The position numbers and the translations under genes were made by a program. A stretch of DNA of 64,000 bases from NCBI RefSeq assembly GCF_022965805.1, contig NC_133104.1:28082069-28146068 (forward strand). Direction: 5' to 3'. This document shows, piece after piece, positions 11,457 to 42,868 of the stretch. The stretch is from Primulina eburnea (lineage: Eukaryota; Streptophyta; Magnoliopsida; Lamiales; Gesneriaceae). How positions within the stretch are numbered: the stretch's first letter is position 1; each line of letters opens with the position of its first letter. The notes under the pieces were generated by a model. That model saw nothing but the letters and a program-made list of their open reading frames with translations, had not been told where the DNA came from and did no database searches.

Positions 11457-13730
11457 TCAAGTTAAATCTATTAAACCAAGAGAATTACGAAAGTAAGAAA
11501 ACTTATTTTCTGGTAAGGGTTTCGTGAAGATATCTGCTGTTTGTTGATCAGTAGAAACATATTCCAGACGAATGTTCTTCTTCTGCACATGATCTCTAAT
11601 AAAGTGATGTCTGATGTCTATGTGCTTCGTTCTGGAATGGAGTACTGGATTTTGTGTGATTGCAATTGCACTGGTATTGTCACAGAATATAGGTGATTCG
11701 GAGGCTTGAATCCCATAGTCTCTTAACTGTTGTTGAATCCACAGTATTTGAGAGCAGCAGCTTCCAGCAGCCAGATATTCTGCTTCTGCAGTAGATGTGG
11801 CTATGGAAGTCTGTTTCTTGCTAAACCAGGATATCAGCCTATCACCAAGAAATTGACAAAAACCACTTGTGCTTTTTCGGTCTAGTTTGCAACCTGCATA
11901 ATCAGCATCTGAATATCCAATAAGATTTAACGATGAATCATTGGGATACCATAAGCCGACGTTTTGAGTTCCTTTCAAGTACTTCAAAATACGCTTAGCA
12001 GCAATATAATGAGATTGTTTGGGGTTAGATTGAAATCGAGCACAAATGCAAACAACAAACATGATATCTGGTCTACTGGCAGTTAAATATAATAAAGAAC
12101 CAATAAGACCTCGATACTGAGTTACCTCTACTGAAATACCACTTTCATCTTTATCAAGCTTAATAGATGAGCTCATTGGAGTAGAAGCAGCAGAGCATGC
12201 TTCCATTCCAAACTTTTTCAGAAGCTCCTTGGTGTACTTGGCTTGATTTATAAAGATTCCAGTCTCTGATTGCTTAATCTGTAATCCTAGGAAGAATGTT
12301 AATTCTCCCATCATACTCATTTCAAATTTATCCTGCATCAATTTTCCAAACTTTGCACATAATTTGGGGTTAGTTGACCCAAAAATAATATCATCAACAT
12401 AGATCTGTACTAAAAGAATGTGCTTATTCTTGACTAAAGTAAATAAAGTTTTATCTACTGCTCCGATGGTGAAATCATGATCAATAAGAAATTGTGATAA
12501 AGTGTCATACCAAGCTCTAGGTGCCTGTTTTAGACCATATAATGCTTTGTGTAATTTAAATACATGATGCGGAGAGAAATGATCGATAAAACCTGGAGGT
12601 TGTTCGACGTATACTTCTTCTTGTAAAAGACCATTTAGAAAAGCACTTTTCACATCCATTTGATATACTTTGAAATTCTTGAAAGCAGCAAAGGCTAAGA
12701 ATATTCTGATTGCTTCGAGCCTTGCTACTGGTGCATAAGTCTCATCAATGTCTATGCCTTCTTCTTGTCTGAAGCCTTGAGCTACCAATCTAGCTTTATT
12801 TCTCACCACTGTGCCTTCTTTATTGAGTTTGTTTCTGAATACCCACCGAGTTCCAATGACAGCTTGATGAGATGGTCTAGGTACTAGAAACCACACTTCA
12901 TTACGTTTGAATTGATTCAGCTCCTCTTGCATGGCTTCAATCCAACTAGGATCCAGAAGAGCTTCTTCAATCTTCTTTGGTTCATCCTGAGCTATAAAAG
13001 CAGCATGCATGTATTCATTAAGCATTTGCCTTCTGGTTCTCAACGGCGCTGCTGGATTACCAATAACCAATGATGGAGGATGAGATTTTCTCCAGATAAA
13101 CGGATTTGAGTGGACATCTTCCTGATTTGATATGTTAAGATTGTCTTCTACAGAACCAGTAGTAGGCTCTTGAGCATCTTCTGCTGGTATTGGTAGATCC
13201 AGAGTCTGTGCTTCTGGTTCCACTATAGGAATGTCTGGTTCTGGATTTTGAAGATCCTTGGTATTTGCTTCTACATCATCTTCACTGTCGATTTCCAAGT
13301 GAATCATGTCTAACATGTTACTTAAATAAGATATGTTAGAAATTTCAGCACTGCTGTCTTCATCGAAGACAACATGAATTGATTCTTCAACATTAAGAGT
13401 TCTATTGTTGAAGATTCTAAAGGCTCTGCTTACAGCAGAGTAACCAAGAAATATTCCAGCATCTGATTTTGAGTCAAATGCCGTCAAATGATTTTTGCCA
13501 TTATTTAGTACAAAACATTTGCAACCAAACACATGAAAATAAGATACATTGGGCTTCTTCCCTTTCCATATTTCATACGGAGTCTGGTTGTGTCTTTTGT
13601 TGACCATAGATCTGTTTTGCGTGTAACAAGCAGTATTGATAGCTTCAGCCCAGAAGCGCTGAGAAATGTCTGCATCTGCTAGCATTGTTCTAGCTGCTTC
13701 TTTTAGAGTTTTATTTCTTCTCTCAGCCAC
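11457..13730 (-). CDS. Sirevirus Pol C-terminal part: integrase end, reverse transcriptase, RNase H
   Basis: A 757-codon open frame, intact to its natural end. Residues 1-90 finish the integrase core ([15 protein letters not shown], the catalytic Glu region) and are followed by the [14 protein letters not shown] segment. A low-complexity acidic linker precedes the reverse transcriptase, which starts near residue 265 and has the catalytic YVDD at about residue 444 ([10 protein letters not shown]). RNase H occupies roughly 600-740 with [10 protein letters not shown], a STAEAEY block and CDNTSAI. The frame is continuous with 13776-14042 apart from one TGA, so this is the downstream part of one Pol polyprotein and the 5' end given is not a real start. 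Its intactness argues for a recent insertion. Confidence 0.88.
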
Positions 13731-13775
13731 TCCGTTTTGTTGAGGAGTTCTGGCAGCTGAATATTCATGATGAAT

Positions 13776-14656
13776 TCACTGCTTATTCAAATATAACTCA
13801 AGATACTTGTTAGTGAATTCAGTACCCCGATCACTTCTGATTTTAATGATGGTAGAAGATTTTTCATTTTGAATCCTTTTCAGAAGCTTGATCAAGAGAC
13901 TACTGGTTTGATCTTTTCCTGTGAGAAAGATTACCCACGTGAATCTAGAAAAATCATCAATAACAACAAGAGTATATTTCATTCCCCCTAAGCTCATGAT
14001 GGGATTGGACCAAATAGATCCATATGCAGTAGTTCCAGACATCTTGAAGTTGTTTTGCTATCTTTGGTCTTGAAGCTGGATCTTATCTGTTTCCCAAGCT
14101 GACAAGCAGAACAAACGTGATTTTTAACGAAATTAATGTCAGGTAATCCATCGACTATATTCTGCTTCTTGAGATAATTGATTGACTTGAAATTCAGATG
14201 ATTCAGTTTCTTGTGCCATAGCCAATGTTTATTGCTAAGAGAAGCAACTAAGCATGTAGGAGTATAAACATGATTTGAGTTCCAAGAGACTCTGTAAGTA
14301 TTGCCTTCTCTTTTTCCTGTTAACACAGTAGTTCCAGCAGAATCTCTAACTATACATGAATGCTTTTGAAAAGCCACAGAATACCCATTATCACATAGTT
14401 GGCTAATGCTGATAAGATTGTAACAAAGATTGTCAACTAATAACACATCACTAATAGTTATATTACCATGGATAATCTTACCCTTACCCATGGTTTTACC
14501 TTTTGAGTTGTCTCTAAAAGTTATCTTTGGTCCAGTACAGCTCACTATCTCGGAAAGTAGGTTTCTTTGTCCAGTCATGTGTCTGGAACAACCACTGTCC
14601 AGATACCATGTAGAGTTACTGATTTCTGCTTCCTTCTGTTGTTCCTGCAAACACAA
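13776..14656 (-). pseudogene. Sirevirus Pol N-terminal part: protease and integrase, broken
   Basis: The first frame (14656-13994) has the protease motif WYLDSGCSRHMTG, then the GAG-pre-integrase zinc finger (His-x4-His ... Cys-x2-Cys around WHKKLNHLN and CSACQLGKQ), and the start of the integrase core (LELLHMDLFGP). A small indel near 13996 shifts into the second frame (14042-13776), which carries the rest of the first catalytic part (VIDDFSRFTWV) and SDRGTEF with the second Asp. A TGA near 13773-13778 then interrupts an otherwise continuous frame into the 757-codon ORF downstream. Two lesions therefore separate protease from RT. Confidence 0.85.
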
Positions 14657-14679
14657 ATTTTACTAACTGGTACCCAAAT

Positions 14680-16731
14680 CTATTTGGGTCCAAGCCTTAT
14701 CAGTCCTTTGGGAACCCACATTTGTACAATTCTTGGTGACCTTGTACTTCGGGTATCCAAAGATGTGTGTGCAACAGAAGGTCTGTTATTTCTAACAGTA
14801 TGCATACCAAAATGTTGTTCTTCCCTTCTGTTTCTGTTTTCCAGTCTGTATCTCTTCTGAACAGGTTTAGAGTTGTAGTACTGGTAGTTTTTAACCTTCA
14901 TAGGATGTTGTCTTCCATAGTTGAATTCTTTTCTGAATCTAGAACTCTGGTCAACTTTTTCCTTAGGTTTAACGTAACCCAGACCATAGTGCATTCTTCT
15001 GTTCGTCAGATTTACATTCCTTTCAACTGAAGCAGTAGGTACTTCTGGTTCCTGTACCACACTGGATTTCACAAAGTGAATGTATTTCCCTTTGCACATA
15101 TTCAGTGTTGGCTTAGTATATGTTTCAGAAGTGCCTTCATTATTACAAAAACCGAGACCACTCCTATCTCCTGACTGTTTTTGTAATTCTTGCATCTTTT
15201 CCAATGAAACAGAAGACTTGTTCCAAGCATTTACGAGTAGCGACAACTTCTGGTTTTCAGAAAGCACTTTCTGGTAATCTGCTTTGGCTCTTTCATTCTC
15301 AGTTATTAATTTACTCATCTTAACTTGTAAATCATTGCAGCTGTCTACTTGCAAGCAAGTTAACTTACTGTTCTGATTTTTTAAGTTCTGATTTTCAATC
15401 TTAACTTCTTCAAATGATTGAGAAAGTCTGGAATACTCTTTTACCATTTCATGCAGTGCATCAATCAAGTCATTTCGTGTAAATTCACTAGAGTCAAAAT
15501 CAAATACCTCTCCAGATGTCGAGGTTGAGTCATTGTCTGCCATTAGACATTTGACTTCTTCTGCATCACTGTCACTGGAATGACTTTCTGAGTCAGATGA
15601 CTCAGAACTAGAGTCCGCCCACTTAGATTTGCTTTCTTCGGCAATCATCGCTTTTCGATCTCTTCTGGATTTTTTGTCATTCCTCTTGTAATCATTTCTC
15701 TTTTGATCATCCTTCTTTGGTTTAGGACAATCAGCAATGTAGTGACATATCTTTCCACAGTTGAAGCATCCCATATCACCAGATGGTGAATCTTTCTTGA
15801 AGTTGCGATTGGGACCTTGATAGGTTCGATGGTTTTTCTTTATAAACCTGGAGAATTTCTTTACAAATAAGGACATAGCATCACTACTGATTTGTTCAGC
15901 AGTCTTCTCCATTGTATTGTCAATGATCACGGCAGGTGATGCCTGAGGTACAACTGCAGCAACAGTAGAGGAGGTCGAGGCAGTAGCAGTAGCAGCAAGA
16001 GCCTTGGTGGGTAAGCTTGAAGGCTCTTCTCCACTTCTCACTTCCAATTCGAACTCGTAGGCCTTTAGATCTGCAAATAAGTCGTGCAGTTCCAATTTGT
16101 TCAAATCTTTGGATACTCTCATAGCCATTGTTTTAACATCACATTCTCTGGGTAAGGCTCTCATCACCTTGAGGGCTATTTCTCTGTTGCTATGCTCTTT
16201 ACCCAGAGCAGCTAGCTCATTGACCAAGCTACTGAATCTTTCATCAAACTCATTTAGAGTTTCACCAGCTCTCATTTTCAGATTTTCAAACTTCTGCATT
16301 GCTACAGACAGTTTATTTTCTTTTGTTTGCTCATTTCCTTCACATATCTGGATGAGCTTTTCCCAAATATCTTTTGCAGTAGAGCACATTTTTATCTTGC
16401 TGAAAGTGTTCTTGTCAAGAGTTTTATACAGTATATCCTTCGCCACATTATCAAGATTGGCCTTCTTCTTATCTTCACTGGTCCATTCACTTCTTGCCTT
16501 TTCGACCATCTGTGGTGCACCGTCAGTAACAGCAACAGCTGTGTTAGGCTTTAAGATTTTCAGTGGACCATCTGTGATGACATACCACATGTCATCATCT
16601 TGTGCTGCAAGATGAGCTTGCATTCTTATCTTCCAGTCGTCAAAATATTCCTTAGAGAACATAGGGATCTTGCTGAAGTGTGCCATTTGTTGTAGTTTTT
16701 CACAAACAAGAATAACCTGCTCTGATACCAA
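14680..16731 (-). CDS. gag: Sirevirus Gag
   Basis: 683 codons. The first ATG overlaps the primer-binding site; the likelier start is the Met about 15 codons in, at MAHFSKIPMF. The N-terminal half is the copia Gag capsid-type domain (DUF4219/UBN2-like, with WKIRMQAHL near residue 35). A zinc knuckle C-x2-C-x4-H-x4-C (CFNCGKICHYIADC) lies at about 321-334, after basic residues. An acidic Ser-rich stretch (about 360-400) and a long coiled coil (about 420-510) follow, an extended C-terminus typical of Sirevirus. It ends at a TAG just after Gly-Pro-Lys, where relatives continue with IWVP-like sequence toward the protease. No internal stop is visible. Confidence 0.88.
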   Translation of the reverse strand: MVSEQVILVCEKLQQMAHFSKIPMFSKEYFDDWKIRMQAHLAAQDDDMWYVITDGPLKILKPNTAVAVTDGAPQMVEKARSEWTSEDKKKANLDNVAKDILYKTLDKNTFSKIKMCSTAKDIWEKLIQICEGNEQTKENKLSVAMQKFENLKMRAGETLNEFDERFSSLVNELAALGKEHSNREIALKVMRALPRECDVKTMAMRVSKDLNKLELHDLFADLKAYEFELEVRSGEEPSSLPTKALAATATASTSSTVAAVVPQASPAVIIDNTMEKTAEQISSDAMSLFVKKFSRFIKKNHRTYQGPNRNFKKDSPSGDMGCFNCGKICHYIADCPKPKKDDQKRNDYKRNDKKSRRDRKAMIAEESKSKWADSSSESSDSESHSSDSDAEEVKCLMADNDSTSTSGEVFDFDSSEFTRNDLIDALHEMVKEYSRLSQSFEEVKIENQNLKNQNSKLTCLQVDSCNDLQVKMSKLITENERAKADYQKVLSENQKLSLLVNAWNKSSVSLEKMQELQKQSGDRSGLGFCNNEGTSETYTKPTLNMCKGKYIHFVKSSVVQEPEVPTASVERNVNLTNRRMHYGLGYVKPKEKVDQSSRFRKEFNYGRQHPMKVKNYQYYNSKPVQKRYRLENRNRREEQHFGMHTVRNNRPSVAHTSLDTRSTRSPRIVQMWVPKGLIRLGPK
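16719..16730 (-). promoter_or_regulatory. Sirevirus primer-binding site (initiator Met tRNA)
   Basis: On the minus strand TGGTATCAGAGC, complementary to the 3' end of initiator tRNA-Met, two bases inside the LTR end. It overlaps the first ATG of the gag frame. Confidence 0.9.
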
Positions 16732-18026: not shown

Positions 18027-19607
18027 GCGACTTTGATTGTTGCACTCCCAAGAGCAGGTTGTCCACAAGTAATATAATTCGGTGAGTCCGAATATCGTAT
18101 CCACAGGGAATCTAAGGTAATTACAAGTCCACTACAATGTCTTTTTGTTTTGTTTTTGTTTTTGTTTCTTTTTAATTTTAATTGTTTGAATATTTAATGG
18201 GTAAATTTTAATTGTTCAAATTTTAATTTAAGTAGTTGAGATTAAAGGATCCACTCTTGGTATTTTAATAAAGTTAACATTAACGAACAATATTGAAATC
18301 CACTTAATAAAATGGTTCCAATATATTAAATAATCATATTTATATTATGTTATAAATTATTATCTCATAAATATATAATATATACCAAAACTTATAAATA
18401 TGGTCAAGTATTTATTGTGCTATATATATATATATTTGTAAACACTAAATCAAGGTTCCCACTTTAAATGGTTGGTAAAACCAAACTAACATTTAAATGG
18501 TACCAAGAAAATATAATTATGATATATTTATATATAGTAAATCAAGGAATCCAAGTTAAATGGTTGGTAAAACCAAACTAACATTTAAATGGTTCCAAGA
18601 ATTTAATATTATATTATATTTATATATAATAAATCAAGGCATCCACTTTAAATGGTTGGTAATACCAAACTAACATTTAAATGGTTCCAAGAATTTAGTG
18701 TAACATATAGCAACAATAAATCAAAACTCCCACTTATAAGTAGGGTATAAAAATACTTAAAGAAATAAATATAACATAAACAATAAATAATGATTAAATA
18801 ATATAAAACATAGATTCTTACTTTTTAATAACCTTATTATCATGCCAAGAGTTTCACCTTATCATCTCAACTTTAGGAAGTTAGCTATTCATTATTCAAA
18901 GTGTAAAACTTTGAATATGAAATTAACATGCTAATTATATTTAAATGAAGAAATAAAGGAAAAATATAGAGAGAAATATTATGAACTCAAAGGTTTGTTC
19001 ATAGAATGAGGGATATCTCAATACATTACAATGCACCCCTATTTATAGCCAAATTTGGGGAGACAACCACAAATAAAATATTATTTTTTACACATAAGTC
19101 TTCATTGGTGTTCCAAGAAATTAATATTATATTACACATCACTTTTGAAAATCTTCTTCTCCGAATTTGCTTCTTCACATAAAAAGAAACATGTAGATAA
19201 TTGAGTTTCTAGTTGTGATATTTTTTTCAGAATATTTGACCAAGTAATTTGAGAGATATGGTCAAAATACTAGAGCATGGTAAAACTGCCACTCTTTTGG
19301 TAACTTTCTTTGTTGCTTAATTTGATCCCAATTGTGAGAGGATTTTTATCTCATGCTTGTCAACAATATTGTAGATATTATAATCGACTTTTTACAGGTC
19401 CAAGAATCATCTTAATCCCATTTGCAACGCCAAGGTTATTCTTGTTTTATCGAACCTGTAAAAAATAGTAAAAACTTATAATTACACACAACTTATATTT
19501 TATACAATTTATTATAAAACATGTAATATTTAAACATTTAATAAAACAAAAACTATATATTTATATTATAAAACATTTAATTAATGTACAATTTTTTATC
19601 TTTATCA
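18027..19607 (-). repeat. Athila 3' LTR, missing its outermost bases
   Basis: On the minus strand it opens TGATAAAG at 19607. The far end should read GTCGCCACA, as in the other LTR, but the final four bases are absent and the sequence runs straight into the Sirevirus fragment. It contains about three diverged tandem copies (18447-18720) of a 90- to 120-bp unit with TTTAAATGGTTGGTAA. Confidence 0.85.
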
Positions 19608-20855
19608 CACTCCCTAACCAGCTTATTGCTAGTCCCTAGCAATTTAAGCGTTAATAGCAACACAAAACATATTGATTAATTTAAATACAAATATAATCAA
19701 AACTATCCAAGTGTTTAAATTAAATTTGAAAACTGTCAAAGTTATATCAAGATCATTCTAATTATAATTGATGAAACAATCTGAACTGATCAATTCAAAG
19801 CTTGTTTCAGGTAGTTAAATGTACACGGCCTTCAGAAATTCTTAGTAAGAGTCTCAACTCCATATCCTCACAGGTTAATAAATGTTTCAATTTATGGCAA
19901 AGATTTCTCTCATGGAGTTGGAATACAGATAAATGCTCAGAAAAATGGTTTACAAAATGCAGACATACAGACGAGCCAAACTAATCAAAAGATAGAAAAT
20001 CCATTGATTCAAAATCTAGTCGTTCTTATTATATATTTTTTTCCTGATATATATATATTTTTTTTTTCATAACATCATGGAATCAGATTAAGTTTATGCT
20101 TCTTGACCACATATTTATTTAATTTGTACAATAAATTTCTCTCTTTTTTTTATTATTTTTTTTTATGAGAGATATATAGGTCGTAGCATATAACTTAAAA
20201 ATTACATAGATCTTCAATATCTTTCTTTTTGTATTTTTCTCCTCTTTTTTTTTCAGGAAATATCATTTTTTTTTCAAAATAAGAACTCAAGATCTAAACA
20301 ATAAATAGTCTCTCTCATGATCAATAAAGGCTCGAAAGCTGTTTTCTCAGTCCTCTCCACTCACTCACAAAATATGTGTGAGTTTAAAATTTTAGGCACT
20401 CTTATAAGGTATATCTTGGGCCATATACTTTAATACCTGATTTTATCACAATGGTTAATCACTCAAAAAGATTTCATAAATCATATTTTTATATTGATCA
20501 GAATATTAAAATTGATTTTTTTTTTTCAAATAAAAATTAAACATCTTTAGATAGATTAATACATTTTCTAATTTAAACCTTTCAAATATGTAATGTATGA
20601 TATTTTTGCAAAAATTACAAAGATACAAGCAATAAACATGATTTTATTATAAAATAATATATATATTTTTATATTTTTTTAAAAAAATTTTTTTAATTTT
20701 TTTTATAAGTTTGTTCTCCCCCCAATCAGAATATGACATTGTCCCTAATGTCAAAATAACTATTAATAGAGAGTACACAATGAAAGAGATATCACCTGGA
20801 ATTTTATTGAAGATAACAAACTGAAACAAACGCAAACCAATCCACGACTTTTGAA
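19608..20855 (-). other. Athila 3' non-coding region
   Basis: Strongly AT-rich, with long T-runs on the plus strand (about 20040-20270, 20516-20525, 20670-20710). No credible frame. Next to the LTR the minus strand reads GGTTAGGGAGTG (19608-19619), a plausible polypurine tract. Confidence 0.6.
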
Positions 20856-21494
20856 TCAATGATCCAACTTTCTTTTCTTACTGCTTGATTGCGACCAATT
20901 GATCTTTGTTATCATCGGATCAGGCTTATGAACAAAATATTCCAAATCATTAATTAATTGAACGGCAGTCGAAGCACAGATGAGCATCCGTCGTTAATTT
21001 TCTGAAATGGAATTCTGTTCCACAGCTTTATCAAGAAATGTCAACAAACTGTCATAATAATTATTGATATTCAACAAGCCCACAGGTTTATTATGGATAT
21101 TAAGTTGTGCCCAAGAAACAGTGTGAAAAATTTCTTCTAATGTACTAAAACCACCTGGTAGTGCGATAAAAGCATCAGAATTTTCAATCATTTTGGTGAT
21201 TCTTTCATACATAGAAGAAACTTTTAATTCTTCCCCAATCGTAACACATGTAATATTTCCTTTAGCTAAAGCTGTAGGAATAATACCCAAAACCTGACTA
21301 CCTCCAAGATGAGCAGATGTTGAAACAGATCACATTAACCCAATATTACCTCCCCCATATACCAAGTGAATTTTTCTCTCAGCCAATGTCTTTCCAAGAT
21401 TATTCGCTGCTTCTACAAACACTTCATTTTTTCCAGGACTCGACCCACAAAAAACACAAATATTTTTCAATGTTTGGGCAGAGGATCCAACCAT
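20856..21494 (-). pseudogene. LOG-type cytokinin riboside 5'-monophosphate phosphoribohydrolase, retro-captured
   Basis: One continuous minus-strand frame of 213 codons from an ATG at 21494 (good context, AAACATGG) to a stop at 20856-20858. It is interrupted by a TGA at 21330-21332 and a TAA at 20994-20996. The domain runs the full length of the LOG family: N-terminal [31 protein letters not shown], and the signature PGGFSTLEE at residues 113-121, followed by WAQLNIHNKPVGLLN and a C-terminal helix. Plant LOG genes activate cytokinins by releasing the base from the nucleotide and normally have several introns. None is present here, so a spliced copy was captured. Apart from the two stops it is remarkably well kept. 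It lies between the Athila integrase and 3' LTR in the same orientation, so it would be carried on the element's RNA. Confidence 0.85.
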
Positions 21495-21704
21495 GTTTTT
21501 ACTTTCTTTTTTTTTTCTGCGAAAATAGAGAGAAAGATGAGAGATTTTATAGGGGTAATATGTTATCATGACAAAACTATGGGTCACAGCTATAAACAGA
21601 ATAAATAGTAAAAACAATAATGACACACATGCATATAAACAGTAGTGTGATTGTGGCTCACAATTTTCCTCTGGTTTTACGTCCAGAAACGGCTTCAACG
21701 CCTT

Positions 21705-22250
21705 CTATGAGTCGAGGATATGATTCCCATCCAATTTTCTTATAAATTGGCAAACAGGGTATTTTTTAGTCGGATTCCCAAGACTATGACGCTCATCTTG
21801 GAATTGTTTCCATAAACGGAGAAGTTCAATATGCACATGTCCACTAGAATGCGTCTCAAGAGTCAATAAGATGTTATCTAAAGACTCCTTACTCAGCCCA
21901 TTCTTAATGAAACCAATTTTATCTTCTCTGTTATTGGAAACACATCCCAAAGATCTGCATCGTTTGTCACAAGTCCATCTCGCACACTTATGACAAACCC
22001 CTAAACTTTTGGCCCTTTGTTTTTTCGCATAAGTGCTTTTTCCTAATCCAGGCAAATACCGAATGAGCAATGATTGTGGAACTTTTCCTCCTAATCGGAC
22101 CTTAGCTTCTATTACAAGACGAATATCTTCTGGAATTCCTTTTTGCATTAGCAATCTCAATCTTTCACACCTTCCTGCATAAATTTTTCTTAGAACATTT
22201 TCAGAAACAGAGGGAAAATATTTACAAATTTTTGAGAGAATTTCATCCAT
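21705..22250 (-). CDS. Cysteine-rich nucleic-acid-binding-like protein (betaflexivirid NABP type) inside Athila
   Basis: An intact 181-codon frame with an ATG in good context (AAAATGGAT), 174 bases after the integrase stop and 210 bases before the LOG-like ATG. Residues 1-65 are helical. A basic arm (STYAKKQRAKSLG) leads into a cysteine cluster of the form C-x2-C-x4-C-x3-C-x4-C at about 86-103, then a conserved-looking IGFIKNG. Basic arm plus zinc-ribbon plus this follow-on is the layout of the small nucleic-acid-binding proteins of vitiviruses and carlaviruses, some of which suppress RNA silencing. That similarity is by eye, not by search. It is not an Athila Gag knuckle and does not resemble the usual Athila env-like ORF. 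A host zinc-finger protein is the main alternative. The absence of stops contrasts with the broken gag and pol. Confidence 0.6.
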   Translation of the reverse strand: MDEILSKICKYFPSVSENVLRKIYAGRCERLRLLMQKGIPEDIRLVIEAKVRLGGKVPQSLLIRYLPGLGKSTYAKKQRAKSLGVCHKCARWTCDKRCRSLGCVSNNREDKIGFIKNGLSKESLDNILLTLETHSSGHVHIELLRLWKQFQDERHSLGNPTKKYPVCQFIRKLDGNHILDS

Positions 22251-22423
22251 TTTGAAAAGAAAAGAAATGATTTTTTTTTTATTTTTGTATCAGCAATTGT
22301 GGGAAACTGATTTAACCGACTATGAGAGTCACGGAGTACCGTTATCCGCCATTTAACCGGAAAAATAAAAAGATTAAGGAAACCTGAAATAAAAACAAAC
22401 AAAATTAAATGCAACATAAAAAT

Positions 22424-23734
22424 TTAAGGATCAGAAAGGGAAATAAACTCTTCTTGAAAGATTTCATTTTCCAAAAATGGTTTAAGCCTTTGTCCATTCA
22501 CTTTAAAAACATCACCATTTTTAGGATTTTCAATATCCACAGCTCCATAAAGATACACATGCTTTACAACATATGGGCCTGTCCATCTTGATCGTAATTT
22601 TCCTGGGAATATGTGAAGTCGAGAATTATAAAGCAAAACTTTTTTACCAATCTCAAAAGATTTTCTAAGAATTGTTTTATCATGAAATGATTTGATTTTT
22701 GCTTTATAAATACTTGAATTCTCATACGCGTCATTTCTGAGTTCATCAAGTTCATTAAGTTGCAATTTACGCAATTTGTTGACATCATCCATGCTTGAAT
22801 TTAAAGTTTTGATCGCCCAATAAGCTTTATGTTCCAATTCCATAGGCAAATGACAATGTTTTCCATAAATCAACCTATAGGGAGACATATTCAATGATGT
22901 TTTAAAAGCTGTTCGATATGCCCAAAGTGCATCATTAAGTCGCAGAGACCAATCTTTTCTATTTGAGTTAATAGTTTTTTCCAAAATTTGCTTTATCTCC
23001 CTATTAGCTAATTCAACTTGTCCATTTGTTTGGGGATGATAAGGAGTAGTTACTTTATGAGTAATACCATATATTTTTCATTAATGAAGCAAACGGTTTA
23101 TTAACAAAGTGAGTTCCCCCATCACTTATCATGGCTCAAGGAATTCCAAATCTACTAAAAATATTTTCTTTTAAAAATTTGATGACGATTTTATGATCAA
23201 TTGTTCGACATGGAATTGCCTCTATCCATTTGGAAACATAATCAACTGCAACTAAAATATACAAATATCCAAACGATGGTGAAAAAGGTCCCATAAAATC
23301 AATTCCCCAACAGTCAAAAATTTCAATTTCAATGATAGGATTCAAATGCATCATGTTTCGTTTTGAAATCGCACCCAATTTTTGACAATTTTCACAATCT
23401 TGCAGATTTCGTGGGTGTCTTTAAACAAAGTGGGCCAATAAAATCCACACTGCAAGATTTTTGCAGCCGTTTTCTTTGAAGAAAAATGTCCTCCGCATGC
23501 TTCTGAATGACAAAATTTAATGACACTACTTACCTCATTTTCGGGTATGCAACGTCGAAAAATTTGATCCGGACAATACTTGAACAGATACGGATCATCC
23601 CAATAAAAGTTTTTTACCTCATTAAAAAATTTTCTTTTATCTTGAGAACTCCATTGCGGTGGCATTTTTCCTGTCACAAGAAAATTTACTATGTTAGCAA
23701 ACCAAGGTGTAGTAGTAACTAAATAGATGTTCAT
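22424..23734 (-). pseudogene. Athila integrase, broken
   Basis: Three frames: 23734-23351, 23378-23136 and 22984-22424. The first holds the zinc-binding His/Cys segment (FCHSEACGGHFS, then CGFYWPTLF) and ends in a frameshift at its last cysteines. The second holds the first catalytic Asp (CWGIDFMGPF) and stops at a TGA-type lesion near 23136. Between 23136 and 22984 the second Asp (SDGGTHF) and the catalytic Glu region read through with further breaks. The third carries the C-terminal part ([26 protein letters not shown]) and ends naturally at 22424. Non-functional. Confidence 0.85.
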
Positions 23735-25955
23735 CAGGAAAATTATCGTTAATTGGTGTCATTTCACAAGATGATCCTGTTACTAGTCTCGATAAATGAT
23801 CGGCTACGACATTCTCAGTTCCTTTTTTATCTTTGATCACAATGTCAAATTCTTGGAGCAACAAAATCCATCGTATCAGTCGTGGCTTTGCATCCTGTTT
23901 GGTCAACAAATATCTAATAGCAGAATGATCAGTAAACATAATAGTCGTTGATCCAATCAAATAAGAACGAAATTTATCTAATGCAAATATTACATCAAGT
24001 AGTTCTTTTTCAGTTGTGGAGTAATTCATTTGAGCATTGTTTAAAGTTCTACTTGCATAATATATCACATAAGGCTTACCGTTTCTTCTGTGACCCAATA
24101 CTGCACCGACTGCATAATCGCTCGCATCACACATGATTTCAAATGGTAAAGACCAATCAGGAGGTTGCATGATAGGAGCTGATGTTAAATGTCGAATGAT
24201 TTTATCGAAAGCATTTTGACATTCTTGAGTCCACTCAAATGCAGTGTCTTTTGTTAAGAGGTTACAAATGTGTTTAGAGATTAAACTAAAGTCCTTTATA
24301 AACCTCCTATAAAATCCAGCATGTCCCAAAAATGAGCGAATTTCTTTAATGGTTTTTGGAGGGGGTAAATTAGCAATGACATCAACTTTTGCTGTATCAA
24401 CTTCAATTCCATGAGATGACACGACATGTCCCAAAACAATTCCAGAAGTAATCATGTAATGACATTTTTCCCAATTTAAAATAAGACCTTTTTCCTCACA
24501 TCTTTTTAAAACTTTTTCCAAATTTTCAAGACAATTATCAAATGTATTCCCAAAGACAGTTAAATCATCCATGAAAATTTCCAAACAATTTTCAACCATG
24601 TCTCAAAAAATGCTTAGCATACATCTTTGAAATGTTGCTGGGGCATTGCATAATCCAAATGGCATCCTTCTAAATGCAAATGTTCCAAAAGGACATGTGA
24701 ATGTAGTTTTATCTTGATCTTCGAGTGCAATGGGAATTTGATAATAACCTGAATATCCATCAAGAAAACAGTAGTATGGATGACCTGCTACTCTTTCTAA
24801 AATTTGATCAAAAAATGGTAATGGAAAATGATCTTTTCTAGTGGTGTCATTTAATTTTCTATAATCAATACACATCCGCCAACTAGATGGGACTCGACTT
24901 GTTAACAATTCACCTTTTTCATTTTTTATCACTGTGATGCCAGATTTTTTCGGAACTACTTGTGTTGGGCTTACCCACTTACTATCAGAAATAGGGTAGA
25001 TAATCCCAACATCAAGTAGTTTGAGAACTTCAGTTTTCACAACATCTTTCATGTGTGGATTTAATCTCCTTTGTGGTTGTTGAGATGTTTTAGCATTTTC
25101 TTCTAAATGAATTTTGTGTGTGCAAATTAGTGGATTAATGCCCTTGAGATCTTTTAGTGTCCAACCAATTGCATTTTTATGTCTTTTAAGCATATCAACT
25201 AATTTACCTTCTTGATCACTTTCTAGTTTGGAAGAAATTACCACCGGATATGTTTCATCTTCTCCAAGAAATGCATATTTCAATTCTTCTGGCAAGGTTT
25301 TTAACTCCAATATGGGTGGTTCGTCTTTGTTCTCATATTTTGCATCAAATTCTTTCTCTGATCCTGGTAACGAGTGATACCTGATAAAATCATCAAGATC
25401 AATTTCAATATTTTCTTTAACAGTTTCAATTGAACAAATATCTAATTGATCACGAGTACTCCCTTCTTGAATGTTTTCTTCCACAAGAGTTTGAATAAGA
25501 TTTTCATCTTCACTTTCATCTCCTTTGTCATGTGGTTGCTTACAAAGATTAAAAACATTGAGCTCCAAGGTCATGTTACCAAATGACAACTTCATTATTC
25601 CATTCCTGCAATTTATAAGAGCATTAGAAGTTGCTAAAAATGGACGACCCAGAATTACAGGAATTGCATTACAAGCTTCGATAGGTTGTGTATCTAAAAC
25701 TATGAAATCGACAGGATATACAAAGTTATCAACTTGGACCAACACGTCTTCTACCATACCTCTTGGCACTTTAACAGATCTATCAGCAAGTAAAAGTGTT
25801 ACCGAAGTAGATTTTAACTCGCCTAGATTGAGTTCTTGATAAACTGAATATGGAAGTAAATTAACACTAGCTCCAAGATCAAGCAAGGCTTTTTTAATCT
25901 TTCGTTCTCCAATAATACATGAAATAGTAGGACAACCAGGGTCTTTGTATTTCAA
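23694..25955 (-). pseudogene. Athila protease, reverse transcriptase and RNase H, one nonsense codon
   Basis: A single frame interrupted only by a TGA at 24603-24605. The protease has ALLDLGASVNLLP, the Athila form of the active site, with ILGRPFL downstream. RT blocks are present in order: VVPKKSGITV, RMCIDYRKLN, FLDGYSGYYQI, FGLCNAPATFQRCM, then after the stop the catalytic FMDDLTVFG. RNase H follows with [21 protein letters not shown] and TDHSAIRYL. It overlaps the start of the integrase frame by about 40 bases in another frame. Catalytic residues are all still present, so the loss is recent. Confidence 0.88.
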
Positions 25956-26016
25956 AGTATTATTATTTTGAATGATTGCACTTACTTGTTCGGCTAAAAA
26001 TGCTTTTTTTTCACAT

Positions 26017-27667
26017 TCAATTTTCTTTCACAGTGCACAAGTCTTTCAAAAATTTAGCATATGATGGTACCTGTTTTATTGCATCTAATAAAGGAATATT
26101 AACTTTTACTTGTTTAAAAATATCATATATATCAGAATTCAAATTTGTTTTTTTTTTATTTTTCAGTGCATGAGGGAATGGTGGTGACACTATCTGTTGA
26201 ACCTCCTCTTCGGAAGTTATGGGTTCCACTTCCTTACCCTTTAAAGTTGATTTATCATCATCTTCACAAGGTTCATGAATGGATTTTTCCACAACCTTAC
26301 CACTTCGAAGGGTAATAACAGATTTTACCTGATCCATCGGTTGAGTTCCAGAAGTTCCAGTTTGTGAATGATGATCCTTGGGATTAGGCATAGGTTGTGA
26401 AGGAAATTTACCTTTCTTATGAACATTAACTGCAGATGCAAATTTAGCAAGAGTATCTTTCAAATCTGTCATGGTTTGAGCAGTTTGAGTATTGATAAAC
26501 TCTTGCTTTGCAATGAAAGAATTCAATGTATCTTCCAAATTTCTTTTAGGTGGAGGAACATAAGGTGCATAATTTTGAAAATTTTGTTGATTTTGGAAAT
26601 GTGGTTGTGAAAATTGTGCAGCATTATCATTCCTCCAACTAAAATTTGGATGATTTCGCCAACCTGGATTGTAATTTTGAGAAAATGGTTCAAAATTTGG
26701 CCTTTTGAAATTGTTCAAAACATTGGCTTGTTCATGGAGACATTCTTTAAAAGAGGGCAAAGTGAGACAATCTTTTGTAAATTGATCACTTGTATCACAG
26801 ATGTGACACACAATTTCTTGAACATATTTTAATTGACCATTCTTTTTCAATTCAAGTGCCTCAACTTTTCTTGCCAAAGAGGTAAATCTAGCTTGAAGAT
26901 CATGTTCATCTTTCAGAGTGTACATACCTCCACCAGATGTAGGAGATTGAATCTTGATTGATGGTTCGATTGTACCTATAGTATCCCAATTTTGAGCATT
27001 TTCAGCTAATGAATCGAGATACTCAATTGCCTCGTTTGGATCTTTATCTTCAAATGTTCCATTACACATAAATTCAACCATTTGCCTATCTTTAGGTGTT
27101 AAGCCTTCATAAAATTGAGAAACAACCCTCCAAATTTCAAAACCATGATGTGGACAAAGATTAAGCAATTATTTGTATCTATCCCAACACTGATAAAAAG
27201 TTTCTCCTTGTTTTTGAGTGAAAGTGATGATTTGCCTTTTGAAAGAATTTGTTCTATGCGATGGAAAAAAACTTTTTCAAAAATTGTTGTTGCAATTCAT
27301 CCCAAGTTCGAATGGATCCCGATCTAAGATTTTGTAGCCAAGTTTTAGCTTTATCTTTTAAAGAAAAAGGAAAAAGCTTAAGTCGAATGGTGTTCATGCT
27401 ACAATTTAGATCATTATATGTGTTGCACACTTCTTCAAACTCTCGTAAATGGATGTATGGATTTTCAGAATCTAAGCCTTGAAAATTGGGTAAAAGTTGT
27501 ATAATACCAGGTTTAAAATTAAAATGAGATGCATCAGGGGGAAAAACTAGACATGAAGGTGTACTAGTACGTGTAGGATTCATGTGATCTCTAAGTGTTT
27601 TTCGTCTATCATGATCATGTTGAGATTGAATTTCATCTTCATTTTCTTGGATGGGTTCTTCCGCCAT
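26017..27667 (-). pseudogene. gag: Athila Gag, frameshifted
   Basis: The likely start is the ATG at 27667 (MAEEPIQENED); the open frame upstream of it is leader. The N-terminal part (to 27254) has the plant Gag block around HLREFEEVCNTYN, LFPFSLKDKAKTWL and WDELQQQFLKKFF. An extra T in a T-run near 27270 shifts the frame, and a TAA follows near 27172. The second frame (27168-26017) continues with VSQFYEGL and a damaged zinc knuckle near 26800 in which the expected His is replaced (CHICDTSDQFTKDC). A frameshift near 26020 separates it from the protease frame. Confidence 0.85.
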
Positions 27668-27840
27668 GTTTTGTAAAAATAAAGGGTTGTTTCGAATGAG
27701 TCGACCACTAAGTGTACGTGGCCAAATGCTCATGCAAATGCAAAAGAAAAAGAAAAAAAAACACACAAAAGCAATAAAAATTCAAATAAAGAAAAATAAA
27801 CTATAAACAATATTAAATAAACTTGAAATTAAATTATACT

Positions 27841-27858
27841 TCCCCGGCAACGGCGCCA
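27841..27858 (-). promoter_or_regulatory. Athila primer-binding site (tRNA-Asp type)
   Basis: On the minus strand TGGCGCCGTTGCCGGGGA, six bases inside the LTR end. It matches the Asp-tRNA type 3' end known as the Athila primer. Confidence 0.88.
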
Positions 27859-27864
27859 AAAACT

Positions 27865-28252
27865 TGTGGCGACTTTGATTGTTGCACTTCCAAGAGCAGG
27901 TTGTCCACAAGTAATATAATTCGGTGAGTCCGAATATCGTATCCACAAGGAGGCTAAGGTAATTACAAGTCCACTACAATGTCTTTTTGTTTTGTTTTTG
28001 TTTTTGTTTCTTTTTAATTTTAATTGTTTGAATATTTAATGGGTAAATTTTAATTGTTCAAATTTTAATTTAAGTAGTTGAGATTAAAGGATCCACTCTT
28101 GGTATTTTAATAAAGTTAACATTAACGAATAATATTGAAATCCACTTAATAAAATGGTTCCAATATATTAAATAATCATATTTATATTATGTTATAAATT
28201 ATTATCTCATAAATATATAATATATACCAAAACTTATAAATGTTTTATTGAG

Positions 28253-28326
<74 letters not shown>

Positions 28327-29495
28327 AAAAACTAAATCAAGGTTCCCACTTTAAATGGTTGGTAAAACTAAACTAACATTTAAATGGTACCAAGAAAATA
28401 TTATTATGATATATTTATATATAGTAAATCAAGGAATCCAAGTTAAATGGTTGGTAAAACCAAACTAACATTTAAATGGTTCCAAGAATTTAATATTATA
28501 ATATATTTATATATAATAAATCAAGGCATCCACTTTAAATGGTTGGTAATACCAAACTAACATTTAAATGGTTCCAAGAATTTAGTGTAACATATAGCAA
28601 CAATAAATCAAAACTCCCACTTATATGTAGGGTATAAAAATGCTTAAAGAAATAAATATAACATAAATAATAAATAATGATTAAATAATATAAAACATAG
28701 ATTCTTACCTTTTAATAACCTTATTATCATGCCAAGAGTTTCACCTTATCATCTCAACTTTAGGAAGTTAGCTATTCATTATTCAAAGTGTAAAACTTTG
28801 AATATGAAATTAACATGCTAATTATATTTAAATGAAGAAATAAAGGAAAAATATAGAGAGAAATATTATGAACTCAAAGGTTTGTTCATAGAATAAGGGA
28901 TATCTCAATACATTACAATGCACCCCTATTTATAGCCAAATTTGGGGAGACAACCACAAATAAAATATTATTTTTTACACATAAGTCTTCATTGGTGTTC
29001 CAAGAAATTAATATTATATTACACATCACTTTTGAAAATCTTCTTCTCCGAATTTGCTTCTTCACATAAAAAGAAACATGTGGATAATTGAGTTGTCTAG
29101 TTGTGGTATTTTTTTCAGAATATTTGACCAAGTAATTTGAGAGATATGGTCAAAATACTAGAGCATGGTAAAACTGCCACTCCTTTGGTAACTTTCTTTG
29201 TTGCTTAATTTGATCCCAATTGTGAGAGGATTTTTATTTCATGCTTGTCAACAATATTGTAGATATTATAATCAACTTTTTATAGGTCCAAGAATCATCT
29301 TAATCCCATTTGCAACGCCAATGTTATTCTTGTTTTATCGAACCTGTAAAAAATAGTAAAAACTTATAATTACACACAACTTATATTTTATACAATTTAT
29401 TATAAAACATGTAATATTTAAACATTTAATAAAACAAAAACTATATATTTATATTATAAAACATTTAATTAATGTACAATTTTTTATCTTTATCA
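27865..29495 (-). repeat. Athila 5' LTR, complete
   Basis: 1631 bp. On the minus strand TGATAAAG...GTCGCCACA. It contains the same diverged tandem units as the other LTR (28334-28610). The difference in length from the 3' LTR is mainly the AT microsatellite. It is followed at 29496 by GTTCACTAATTAA, which is internal sequence of a Tekay LTR (compare 47177 onward). Confidence 0.88.
28253..28321. repeat. (AT)n microsatellite in Athila LTR
   Basis: About 34 AT dinucleotides. The other LTR has only about seven at 18421-18436, so the tract expanded or contracted after insertion. Confidence 0.95.
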
Positions 29496-31773
29496 GTTCA
29501 CTAATTAATTTATTTATTCACTAAAATATTTAATGGGTAGATAAAACTCTAAAGATTTAAAATGCATTATTTAAGCAATTTCCTGCCCATATTTTAAATG
29601 ATAAAATCGGCCACCTCCATTAGGAAATTTAAAAATATTGTCAACTCTCCATCTTTTAATTTCTTTCCTTATTCTTTACATGGTAGATGATTTCCTTCAC
29701 TTTTATTCACCACTAATTAACAATTAAACAATATCATCCCTTATTTTGTGAGCAAGAAATCGGGCCCCTCATCCCACAATTTATCTCTCAAATCAAATCA
29801 TATCACATATCATTCCATTTCTCACAAACTAGAAAGATAACAAGATTTTTCTCTTCCTTTTATCTTGCAACCTCCCATTTATTTCCCTAGCCTCCCCTCC
29901 CTCTCCTTGGTCTCAAAATTCAGTAGGTTTTCGGAGAGAAAAATCGTTAGGATACTAGAAGAAAACAAGAGAGAAAAGCAAGAAGCAAAGCAACTCCGTC
30001 TCTTCCGCGCCGCGTCGTCGTAATTGTTTGTTTTTCTTTCCAAAAAATTCCAAGGCATGTATATGTTATTCCTTGCTCTTCAATCAAGTCCTATATTTTA
30101 GTAACATTTCATGTGCATGATTAAGAAGGCAAAAACCGAAATTTTCAGCAACAAGAACAAGAAAAATTCTGCACAGATTTTTGTTTCTCCTATGCCTTCA
30201 CGGTTTGGTATGTTTTAGTTGTTTCAGGGTTGGTTCAATTTCCAGGGGCTCAAGGCTCCTTATGGTCATGTTATAGGGTGTTTTAGGAAGGGTTTAATTC
30301 ATTAGTTGCATGCCATTCACCCCAGAAAAACCGAATTGGGACATCAACTCGTCCATGGTGCATTTTTGAGTCGCGATTTCTGATCTTTGGGTTGTCCAGG
30401 TTGTGGTTCGGATCTCGGTTGGCCTTTGGACCTATAACCGTTGTCATAGTACTTCCTTGAAATGTCTAGGACATGTCCAAGTCGGCCTTTCATGGCTTGG
30501 TTCGTGGTTCCTAACAGTTTTTAAAACAAACAAGAACAACGCCCCATCGGTTTTCAATTTCTGAAATTTTTTGCACAAGTTGGTTTTCGGTTTTGAGGAT
30601 GGAATGGATCTTCGTTGACTTTTTTCCCTTAGCCATAGTTCATACAATAACTCATGATGTCTAGATCATGCCATGGTCAATCAAATGGCCACTGGAAGGA
30701 TGCATGACAGCAAGAAAATTGCAATACCCCACGCGTGCCATATGCGCTCTCGGGTGAAGCGTGTGTTGTCAAACATGTTGGATTGGATTGTGGCTGGCCT
30801 AAGGCCCTTAGCCATGGTTCATGCCATACCTTAGGATGTTGGGAAGAGGCTGTGGTCGGTGGTTCAAGCCCCAATGGCCAATAGCCTCGAAAACGAAGCA
30901 AGGAAACGCAAGCGCTGCTGCTGTAATTTTGGACAGCAACTTGGTGCTTAGGGTCAGAGGCTCGTTTGAGTTTTCAGTTGGCTTTTAGCCTATGGCCTTG
31001 GACTGGACAGTACCTCATCGAGTTAGGAAGGTCATGTCTTTGGCCGTTCGGGATTCGGTTAAGTTTAGAGGTCGGACGAGAATTTACGGTGTAATGTGCC
31101 AAAATGACTCTCGAAAGAGCGTTTCTTGTTTTTGACCTCCATTCACCAAATTTCGATTTGCACAGATTTTGGAGCTTTATTTAATCATTTTAGGTGTATT
31201 TTAATAATGACTAAATGATGGTTCGGGTTGGTAAGGAGTCATGGTTAGAATTTTAGTTGTTGGTCTAGTTGGCCCGTTTTTGGGTTCAATGACTAAGTTA
31301 TTTTCAAGGTAAAATCATTTGCATATTTTTCATATAACAATTAGGTCGCAGCGAGCCTCGGAACGATCCAACCCATTCGGTAAAATAATACAAGATTTAA
31401 TTATATTACGTGCATAAAAATATAAAATGTTCATTTTTTAGATATATGCGATATTGCTTGTGGCCACTTCACATTAATGGGATTGCAGCTTATCATGGGA
31501 TTATTACTTCATCCGGTGGTCACTGACCGGTTCATGTTCATGTATTGGTAGATCTCTACCGCCCGGTATACTGTGGTTTAGTCTGATCAGACGATTCATT
31601 TCACGTTATGAGCCACTTGCGTAGAACATATTCTCAACAGAAAACTATTATATGGTATTTCATGACAGGGCTCTATCGAGCAAATATTTTGTAACGTACC
31701 AGATTCGACGACTATCCTCATTGTACCAAGACGAGTCTTTCCAGCGTGCTTATGTCCTCACTCACACGCACGC

Positions 31774-34083: not shown

Positions 34084-34760
34084 TTCGTGATATGAGTAGT
34101 ACCAATCAAATCTTTTAAGCCCTCTTCAACTGTTCAGTCTATTACATTGCACAGTCTCGGAATCCCTCTCATTCCCGTGTGGGTCGGTTCATTCATGTTC
34201 CCTCCACCTAGAAGCCTGCCAGGAGCCGCTCATTGTCCGTGCAACTGATGGCACCGGCGATCACCCCCCGCCCTCTTCGGCCCCGGGCCTCACATATTTC
34301 ACTTACGATTTTCAGTTCAGTTATGCACGTATTTATAATTATACATGACAAGATATTTTCACGTTACGCCATACACATGATATTTTTACTTTGCATGCGA
34401 TTTTATTATAATTACTTGTTATTTACGATATATACACGTCGAGTCTTTAGACTCACTAGACTTGACTGTTGTAGGTACTGATGAGGTCGGGACTGAGGGC
34501 GGGGACCAGTGAGCCATCTTGGGTCGACAGTAGTAGGAACCCGATGACCTCATGCTTCAGGTCATTTACCATTTTTATGATCAAACATTTTTATCGCGAT
34601 TGCTTATTTTAAATTTGTTGTATCAAAACAGACATTTACTTCCACTGCTATGTTGAACCTTTGACCAGTTTAATTTATGAATGATGCATATTACTTATTT
34701 TAAAAGAAAATTTTAAATTTTTCCGCAATTTTTCAAATACGAATTTCGGGCCTCTACAGC

Positions 34761-34772
34761 TGGTATCAGAGC
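34761..34772 (+). promoter_or_regulatory. Tekay copy A primer-binding site
   Basis: TGGTATCAGAGC (initiator tRNA-Met), two bases after the LTR end CTACA. Confidence 0.9.
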
Positions 34773-34999
34773 CAGGTTCTTGTAAAGGGTTGTACTATTA
34801 CTGACCTCGAGAAGCTCACGAAGTCACGCCTTCGGTTTGTAAGTTTTACATTTACGCATTTTGTTTACAGCATGAAATATTTTAACAACATGTTTTCATG
34901 AAATATTTTACGTTCAGATTTCGATTACGCATTATTTAAATTTAAAGAAATCATAGAGATTATGCATGTTAGTTATGTATGGGTTATATATGGAACAAT

Positions 35000-42600: not shown

Positions 42601-42854
42601 AGCTTGCTTGGGTCGGCAGTAGTAGGAACCCGAGGACCTCATTTTCAGCACACTTATTATTTTTATTCCAAACTCAGTTTTATTTTGTTGAATTATTTTA
42701 TGTTGTTATTTTGAAAACATCATTTACTTCCGCTGCCATTTTAAACATTGAATATTTTTATCAGTATATTTTATGAAAGAGGCGTTTTATTTATTTAAAG
42801 AGAAAATTTTAAATTATTCCGCAAATTTTCAAGTACAAATTTCGGGCCTCTACA
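39683..42854 (+). repeat. Tekay-like LTR (copy B, 5' side)
   Basis: 3172 bp, TGTAGAACCGG...GGGCCTCTACA, followed by a primer-binding site. It has the same organisation as the other Tekay LTRs: CT-rich stretch, GTCGTCG motif, conserved ATG at 40723 and internal CCCTTAGCCATGG repeats. It is clearly more diverged from the LTR at 46872 than that LTR is from copy A. Confidence 0.88.
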
Positions 42855-42856
42855 AT

Positions 42857-42868
42857 TGGTATCAGAGC
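42857..42868 (+). promoter_or_regulatory. Tekay copy B primer-binding site
   Basis: TGGTATCAGAGC, two bases after the LTR end. Confidence 0.9.

What the first reader, a model, noticed from the sequence alone, without database searches (positions are those of the whole stretch)
20856..22250. Athila retrotransposon carrying a virus-like nucleic-acid-binding ORF and a LOG-like cytokinin enzyme side by side
Seen: two ORFs foreign to Athila lie in the same orientation between the integrase stop and the 3' LTR, where extra or env-like ORFs sit. The first is intact (181 codons); the second is complete but has two stops. Known: small cysteine-rich proteins of vitiviruses and carlaviruses bind nucleic acid and some suppress silencing; LOG enzymes activate cytokinins. 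Inference: the element gained an accessory module that could blunt host silencing and alter local hormone state or cell division. I know of no described retrotransposon with this pair.
Basis: partly seen in the sequence, partly recalled or inferred. Interest (0 to 1): 0.93.

Follow-up and report, generated by a model that had tools for sequence, protein, structure and literature searches.

The report
Retrotransposon carrying virus-like and hormone genes
A very common plant jumping gene carries two extra genes side by side, one resembling a plant-virus RNA-binding protein and one resembling the enzyme that activates the growth hormone cytokinin, and both appear to be kept working by selection.

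Summary
ORF A (181 codons) matches Pfam Carla_C4 above its cut-off (E 3.5e-6). ORF B is a LONELY GUY (LOG) phosphoribohydrolase (PF03641, E 3.5e-31), broken by two stops in this copy. There the pair belongs to a high-copy Ty3/gypsy family: 1425 and 1464 first-look candidates; of the 150 best scored for each gene, 148 lack inner stops. LOG lies about 210 bp behind NABP in 27 of 28 NABP-centred loci, 17 of the 27 in one open frame. Both genes are constrained roughly like integrase over deep splits (dN/dS 0.14-0.26). A second subfamily keeps the order but has an altered NABP end. NABP relatives occur in Populus, Rhamnella, Xanthoceras, Orobanche and Acer. NABP is bracketed by conserved DNA blocks, and splice-acceptor-like sites precede both genes. 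LOG domains in Citrus/Populus gypsy elements were already reported; ten literature searches found no report of the NABP gene or the pair. Silencing suppression and cytokinin activity remain inference.

The parts
27869..29495 (-). 5' LTR of the element
   Evidence: self-BLAST and LTR alignment
27840..27858 (-). primer-binding-site-like stretch beside the 5' LTR (tRNA-Asp type, label recalled)
   Evidence: sequence read
26017..27781 (-). gag region, in two frames
   Evidence: Retrotrans_gag E 9.3e-9 on 27257-27781; no Pfam match on 26020-27168
22424..26027 (-). pol region (protease, RT, RNase H, integrase) broken into several frames
   Evidence: Pfam on separate natural frames, frames
22384..22385 (-). 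AG of the splice-acceptor-like site upstream of NABP
   Evidence: best-scoring acceptor of the locus in a crude scan (L002)
22297..22361 (-). conserved 5' block before the NABP start
   Evidence: 84-89% identical between lineages; 75 of 77 own loci keep its core with at most 1 mismatch
21705..22250 (-). ORF A, NABP: Carla_C4 / Viral_NABP-like, 181 aa, open
21643..21784 (-). conserved 3' block: last 26 codons of NABP plus about 62 nt beyond
   Evidence: 87-96% identical between lineages, also at synonymous positions
21517..21518 (-). AG of the splice-acceptor-like site upstream of LOG
   Evidence: second-best acceptor of the locus in a crude scan (L002)
20856..21494 (-). ORF B, LOG: intronless phosphoribohydrolase-like gene, with two in-frame stops in this copy
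20716..20723 (-). polypurine-tract-like run (label recalled)
   Evidence: sequence read; a similar run follows NABP in L001
18027..19607 (-). 3' LTR of the element

Best explanation
This is a broken copy of a high-copy Ty3/gypsy (Athila-type) family whose better-kept members carry two accessory genes between integrase and the 3' LTR. NABP is a small basic protein with a four-Cys motif, related to the nucleic-acid-binding / silencing-suppressor proteins of betaflexiviruses. LOG is an intronless relative of the plant enzyme that releases active cytokinin from its nucleotide. Shown here: the pair, its order, its copy number, purifying selection on both genes, and conserved DNA blocks around NABP. 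Inferred: each gene is made from its own spliced RNA using the acceptor just upstream; NABP binds RNA and shields the element from silencing; LOG raises active cytokinin in the cell and so favours dividing, meristem-like cells through which new insertions reach the germ line; LOG joined a lineage that already had NABP.
For: Profile hits. 148 of the best 150 NABP and 148 of the best 150 LOG places lack inner stops; in subfamily B, which the list covers beyond its weakest members, 57 of 80 LOG places lack them. LOG follows NABP in 27 of 28 loci, NABP sequence precedes LOG in 29 of 30, and in B in 20 of 20. dN/dS: NABP 0.26 and 0.14-0.16, LOG 0.19-0.21, integrase 0.16. L001, from another plant, has NABP in the same slot without LOG. 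A Rhamnella protein joins NABP and LOG sequence in that order (P0102). Splice-acceptor-like sites. Active-site motif GGFGTLEE in 45 of 47 stop-free A copies.
Against: No expression, binding or enzyme data. The Viral_NABP score of the window protein is just below its cut-off, and fold searches are weak. In subfamily B NABP ends at a different stop in all 20 loci examined and earlier in 3 of them; LOG within B shows a ratio of 0.87 on few changes. The site before LOG in B is not among the seven best acceptors, and in L001 the NABP site is only third. The Lys beside the motif Arg is replaced in most LOG hits. The Athila lineage was not tested with a tree.
Confidence: 0.72

Rival explanations
1. 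NABP works inside the element's own cycle, as an RNA chaperone or packaging factor that may recognise the conserved blocks flanking its gene, and is not a silencing suppressor.
For: The protein is basic (net charge +16) and its gene is bracketed by strongly conserved DNA blocks that persist in subfamily B although the frame ends before the 3' block.
Against: No direct evidence of binding to the blocks; the viral relatives carry names that include 'RNA silencing suppressor'. The two roles do not exclude each other.
Confidence: 0.35
2. The LOG gene is kept for another reaction, not for cytokinin activation.
For: The Lys next to the motif Arg is replaced by Leu, Met or Ile in 105 of 120 listed hits. 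The NCBIfam equivalog cut-off of 300 bits is not met (125.6 and 121.2 bits).
Against: PGGxGTxE is kept in 105 of 120 hits; TIGR00730 scores 177.9 and 179.2 bits against a cut-off of 96.35. The equivalog model is one that NCBI uses for bacteria and archaea.
Confidence: 0.25
3. NABP is not related to the viral proteins; a basic patch and four Cys arose independently.
For: Low domain scores, poor structure models, Foldseek E-values of 0.033 and worse. Five of 32 members also give a weak match to an unrelated family, SHQ1.
Against: Carla_C4 above its cut-off and 28 of 32 members at E<=0.01, Viral_NABP in 26 of 32 with best E 1.1e-8; 18 of the first 20 fold hits are named proteins of betaflexivirus-type plant viruses (family label recalled).
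Confidence: 0.15
4. The pair is passenger DNA amplified with a successful element.
For: Many near-identical copies reflect recent amplification; LOG within B has ratio 0.87; 10 of 27 LOGs in the NABP-centred sample are broken.
Against: Deep-split dN/dS of 0.14-0.26 for NABP and 0.19-0.21 for LOG, within-A ratios 0.34 and 0.28 beside 0.28 for integrase, and NABP length kept at about 182 aa in 123 relatives.
Confidence: 0.06

Closest known systems
YgdH/LOG-domain extra ORFs in Ty3/gypsy elements of Citrus and Populus (Steinbauerova 2011, not read; PMC9289625, section 12 read)
   Same: LOG-family domain in plant Ty3/gypsy elements
   Different: No NABP gene is mentioned in the section read, nor selection, spliced expression or conserved flanking blocks
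Sense additional ORFs (aORF-3S / env-like) between pol and 3' LTR, e.g. Athila and Bagy2 (PMC7264820, passages read)
   Same: Same slot and orientation; splicing is reported there for Bagy2
   Different: Those are named for retroviral env similarity; here the two products are a virus-type NABP and an enzyme
Carlavirus / betaflexivirus nucleic-acid-binding proteins (Carla_C4, Viral_NABP)
   Same: Basic stretch followed by a Cys motif; profile match
   Different: Encoded by a retrotransposon; longer, with its own conserved N- and C-terminal parts; activity untested
Plant LOG enzymes (At2g37210, At5g11950)
   Same: Full-length homology and, in intact copies, the PGGxGTxxE motif
   Different: Intronless, carried by an element; separate clade from the two Arabidopsis proteins tested; Lys beside the motif Arg mostly replaced
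AlkB-type demethylase ORF in Phalaenopsis Ty3/gypsy elements (PMC9289625, abstract and passages)
   Same: A gypsy lineage that fixed an extra enzyme gene
   Different: Different enzyme; activity was shown in vitro there

Membership tests
Ty3/gypsy LTR retrotransposon | two LTRs and gag, protease, RT, RNase H, integrase in that order | tested here: met
   integrase core pieces match rve and rve_3 below the cut-offs
Athila lineage | placement with Athila in a pol tree | not tested
   no reference Athila set was at hand; the primer-binding-site type and ORF position fit, from recall
Plant aORF-3S | sense ORF between pol and 3' LTR present in most copies | tested here: met
   sampled copies: 27 of 28, 29 of 30, 20 of 20 with both genes; 3' LTR position shown for the window copy only
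Carla_C4 (PF01623) | score above the curated cut-off of 20.9 bits | tested here: met
   27.3 bits
Viral_NABP (PF05515) | score above the curated cut-off of 23 bits | tested here: not met
   21.3 bits for the window protein; 26 of 32 relatives match at E<=0.01, best 1.1e-8
Viral NABP type | basic stretch plus four Cys | tested here: met
   in the window protein; 120 of 123 keep the basic stretch and 99 of 123 all four Cys
Viral NABP type | nucleic-acid binding or silencing suppression | not testable with these tools
   needs bench work
LOG phosphoribohydrolase family | PF03641 / TIGR00730 match above cut-off | tested here: met
   window piece 108.5 bits to PF03641; P0121 and P0133 above the TIGR00730 cut-off, the window piece alone 94.6 of 96.35
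LOG phosphoribohydrolase family | PGGxGTxxE motif (recalled) | tested here: met
   changed in the window copy; GGFGTLEE in 45 of 47 stop-free A copies and 18 of 20 B copies, GGLGTLEE in one more
LOG equivalog NF058542 | score above 300 bits | tested here: not met
   125.6 and 121.2 bits for P0121 and P0133
LOG phosphoribohydrolase family | enzyme activity on cytokinin nucleotides | not testable with these tools
   needs bench work

The most novel reading that the evidence does not exclude
A plant LTR-retrotransposon lineage has assembled a retrovirus-like accessory kit, a virus-type silencing suppressor and a cytokinin-activating enzyme, each made from its own spliced RNA. It has kept the kit across eudicots, using it to shield its RNA and to steer host cells towards division so that insertions reach the germ line. 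The NABP kinship would mean gene exchange between betaflexiviruses and retrotransposons, in either direction.
Probability: 0.33. Interest if true: 0.92.

Novelty: new variant of a known kind. Interest (0 to 1): 0.77.

Why it matters
Extra ORFs of plant retrotransposons are common, but few have a plausible role. Here two have recognisable biochemistry, are under selection and occur in many copies of one genome, so their function can be tested directly. If NABP suppresses silencing and LOG activates cytokinin, plant retrotransposons would be using tactics known from plant viruses and from cytokinin-producing microbes. The link to betaflexivirus proteins also bears on where those viral proteins came from, and the conserved blocks around NABP offer a new cis-acting element to study.

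Tried and rejected
NABP in viral contigs (the 5' block as exact DNA) and in plasmids: no match. Rfam on 19608-23000: none. Structure models had mean pLDDT 62.6 and 71.4, so the fold searches count only as weak support. A long-range RNA helix bracketing NABP was considered; a core recurs in L001, L016 and subfamily B, but shuffles reached the duplex energy in 20, 15, 10, 56 and 49 of 300 tries for the five loci tested, so it is not claimed. A search for further NABP subfamilies with P0039 listed 150 of 1341 candidates; the listed rows overlap the A places, and L086, fetched from the end of that list, is an A-type copy with a broken LOG. The exact search for the B-type 5' block gave 69 places and 0 for the reversed control; six of these away from listed LOG places were fetched and all look like B-type copies, some degraded. 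No evident target-site duplication was seen in the flanks printed. Passenger DNA was rejected on the dN/dS results.

Full report
What is there. The window holds a Ty3/gypsy element on the minus strand with LTRs at 27869-29495 (5') and 18027-19607 (3'): 33 substitutions over 1581 aligned sites, K2P 2.1%, about 0.8 or 1.5 My at two recalled rates. Its frames give Retrotrans_gag, aspartyl protease, RVT_1, RT_RNaseH and Integrase_H2C2 above the Pfam cut-offs; the integrase core pieces (rve, rve_3) fall below theirs, and the second gag frame has no match. pol is broken into several frames, so this copy cannot make an intact polyprotein. Between the last integrase frame (22424-23077) and the 3' LTR lie ORF A, 21705-22250, and ORF B, 20856-21494, both in the sense of pol.

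ORF A. It scores 27.3 bits to Carla_C4 (cut-off 20.9) and 21.3 to Viral_NABP (cut-off 23). A search of public proteins gives 165 relatives at E<=1 among 267 candidates, and a profile search 548 at E<=0.01 among 7737 candidates; 120 are listed each time, at 51-95% identity. Named hosts in the lists are Xanthoceras sorbifolium, Rhamnella rubrinervis, Orobanche gracilis and minor, Populus x canadensis and alba, and Acer yangbiense; most rows have no host name. In a 32-member alignment 28 members match Carla_C4 and 26 Viral_NABP at E<=0.01 (best 5.8e-8 and 1.1e-8), and 5 also match SHQ1 weakly. Of 123 aligned members, 120 keep at least five basic residues at positions 73-83 and 99 keep all four Cys; the window protein has net charge +16. 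Two structure models were poor. With the first, 18 of the first 20 viral fold hits are named proteins of betaflexivirus-type plant viruses, several called RNA silencing suppressor, but with E from 0.033 to 1.4. With the second the first four are of that kind (E 0.099 to 0.70) and most later ones are not. The PDB gave nothing useful. I take viral kinship of the basic-plus-Cys region as likely, not proven.

ORF B. Its middle piece matches PF03641 at E 3.5e-31 and PDB chain 2a33 (At2g37210) at E 2.9e-34, and its N-terminal piece matches LOG structures too. In this copy there are two in-frame stops and a changed PGGxGTxxE motif. The frame has no intron; that plant LOG genes have several is recalled, so capture through an mRNA is inferred. 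The search for relatives scored 7999 candidates and lists 120; named hosts include Xanthoceras, Diplodiscus, Reevesia, Primulina, Populus and Paulownia. Not every one of these is shown to lie in a retrotransposon. In a tree, 27 of those hits plus L016 (28 rows) form one group apart from two Arabidopsis LOGs and two bacterial ones, with support 98/94. Only two plant host LOGs were in the tree, so nesting among other host LOGs is not excluded. Of the 120 hits, 105 keep PGGxGTxE. The Lys after the motif Arg is kept in 6, replaced by Leu, Met or Ile in 105 and by Ala in 1; 8 did not match the pattern.

The genome. The window lies at G000:C4:28082069-28146068 of an 812-Mb assembly. Its contig C1 has 65783404 bases, the length given for the contig of P0133, named Primulina eburnea. 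With ORF A as query there were 1425 first-look candidates; of the 150 scored, 149 match from residue 1 to the end and 148 have no inner stop. With P0121 (94% identical to the window LOG) there were 1464 candidates; all 150 scored are full length and 148 have no inner stop. These are the best-scoring 150, so the share of open frames overall will be lower. With P0133 as query, 80 of 150 rows belong to a second subfamily, B (82-100% identity), 57 of them without an inner stop, before subfamily A appears at 68%.

Linkage. Of 28 NABP-centred A loci (L002-L029, the window copy being L002), 27 have LOG about 210 bp behind the NABP stop. Of those 27 LOGs, 17 are full length in one frame without a stop and 10 are broken, the window's among them. 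Of 30 LOG-centred A loci (L030-L059), 29 have NABP sequence upstream, 23 of them full length in one frame without a stop. At least four elements were sampled in both sets. The two exceptions, L020 and L049, lie 9.3 kb apart on the same strand of C3 and are probably one element split by a nested insertion. Of 20 B loci all have NABP upstream of LOG. There NABP runs to a shared stop at codon 177 in 17 and stops earlier in 3, with an insertion and a different C-terminus. In another plant (L001, a contig filed in a bacterial MAG but carrying plant-type Ty3/gypsy integrase) NABP follows integrase in the same way, and no LOG is found in the remaining 989 bases. NABP can therefore occupy the slot without LOG. 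In Rhamnella one predicted protein joins NABP and LOG sequence in that order (P0102) and another joins integrase and NABP (P0060); such joined gene models are annotation artefacts, but they show adjacency.

Selection (Nei-Gojobori, own scripts; copies with stops or gaps left out of the within-family sets). Window NABP against L001: dN 0.214, dS 0.835, ratio 0.26; the integrase piece 0.16. NABP codons 1-150, A against B, three pairs: 0.14-0.16 at dS 1.5-1.8. LOG, A against B, three pairs: 0.19-0.21 at dS about 1.2. Within A: NABP 0.34 (27 distinct sequences), LOG 0.28 (24), integrase 0.28 (14). Within B: NABP 0.45 (12 distinct) and LOG 0.87 (10 distinct, few changes). Over the deep splits both accessory genes are constrained roughly like integrase; the young B copies alone do not show it for LOG.

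Cis signals. A block of 61 nt before the NABP start is 84-89% identical between lineages; the last 26 codons of NABP are 90-96% and the next 62 nt 87-90% identical. NABP codons 1-150 are 68-72% and the following 60 nt 37-56% identical. Of 77 own loci with an NABP match, 75 keep the 5' core with at most one mismatch and 77 the 3' core with at most two. Among codons for the same amino acid, those at the end of NABP are identical in 20 of 20, 20 of 21 and 22 of 23 cases, against 60 of 106, 56 of 96 and 56 of 98 elsewhere (Fisher p 4e-5, 6e-4, 2e-4). In subfamily B these bases persist although the frame ends before them. This points to a cis-acting element that overlaps the gene. Whether it works through RNA structure is open: the predicted long-range pairing does not stand out from shuffles. 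A crude acceptor scan with a recalled consensus ranks the sites just upstream of NABP and LOG first and second in L002 and L016, second and third in L030; in B (L061) the NABP site is first but the LOG site is not in the top seven; in L001 the NABP site is third. This fits, without proving, separate spliced RNAs, as reported for Bagy2 (PMC7264820, passages read).

What is known. PMC9289625 (outline, passages and section 12) reports the YgdH/LOG domain in Ty3/gypsy consensuses of Citrus sinensis, C. clementina and, with a looser filter, Populus trichocarpa, in line with Steinbauerova 2011, which I did not read. PMC11728184 (passages) describes other aORFs in sunflower Athila and Tekay elements. 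Ten searches of the held library listed no report of a carlavirus-type NABP in a retrotransposon or of the pair; most subscription papers are not in that library.

Verdict. The finding is real, repeated and selected; the window holds a damaged member. The slot and the LOG domain are known kinds; the NABP gene, the pairing and the conserved signals around NABP appear new. The proposed functions are the natural reading of the two families and await tests.

Noticed in passing
window 21643-21784 and 22297-22361 (-): DNA blocks on both sides of NABP, the 3' one overlapping its last 26 codons, are more conserved than the gene, also at synonymous positions and in a subfamily where the frame ends before the block.
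   Followed up: partly
window 8960-10249 (-): A neighbouring copia element (gag and RT frames 11457-16731) has a sense ORF of 429 aa after pol with a sub-cut-off match to Transposase_32 (35.1 of 45 bits): another extra ORF.
   Followed up: partly
window 18286-18769 and 28173-28656: The LTRs hold tandem repeats with a period of 92 bases.
   Followed up: no
window 29496-31689, 34296-35226, 40312-43169, 47179-49843, 56619-59533: Related repeats of 75-94% identity recur along the right part of the window; one pair begins exactly at the end of the element.
   Followed up: no
L001 1-3330: A contig filed under a Candidatus Nomurabacteria MAG carries Ty3/gypsy integrase and NABP and looks like plant contamination.
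   Followed up: partly
L060-L079 (subfamily B): NABP has an insertion and a shared stop at codon 177 in 17 of 20 copies while LOG stays open in nearly all 20: either an alternative C-terminus or early decay of NABP.
   Followed up: partly
proteins P0121-P0240: The Lys after the motif Arg of LOG enzymes is replaced by Leu, Met or Ile in 105 of 120 listed hits, possibly a changed active site.
   Followed up: no
proteins P0122 and P0124 (Xanthoceras): Each predicted protein holds two LOG-like stretches; in P0122 a gag-like stretch resembling the window's gag lies between them, seen by eye.
   Followed up: no
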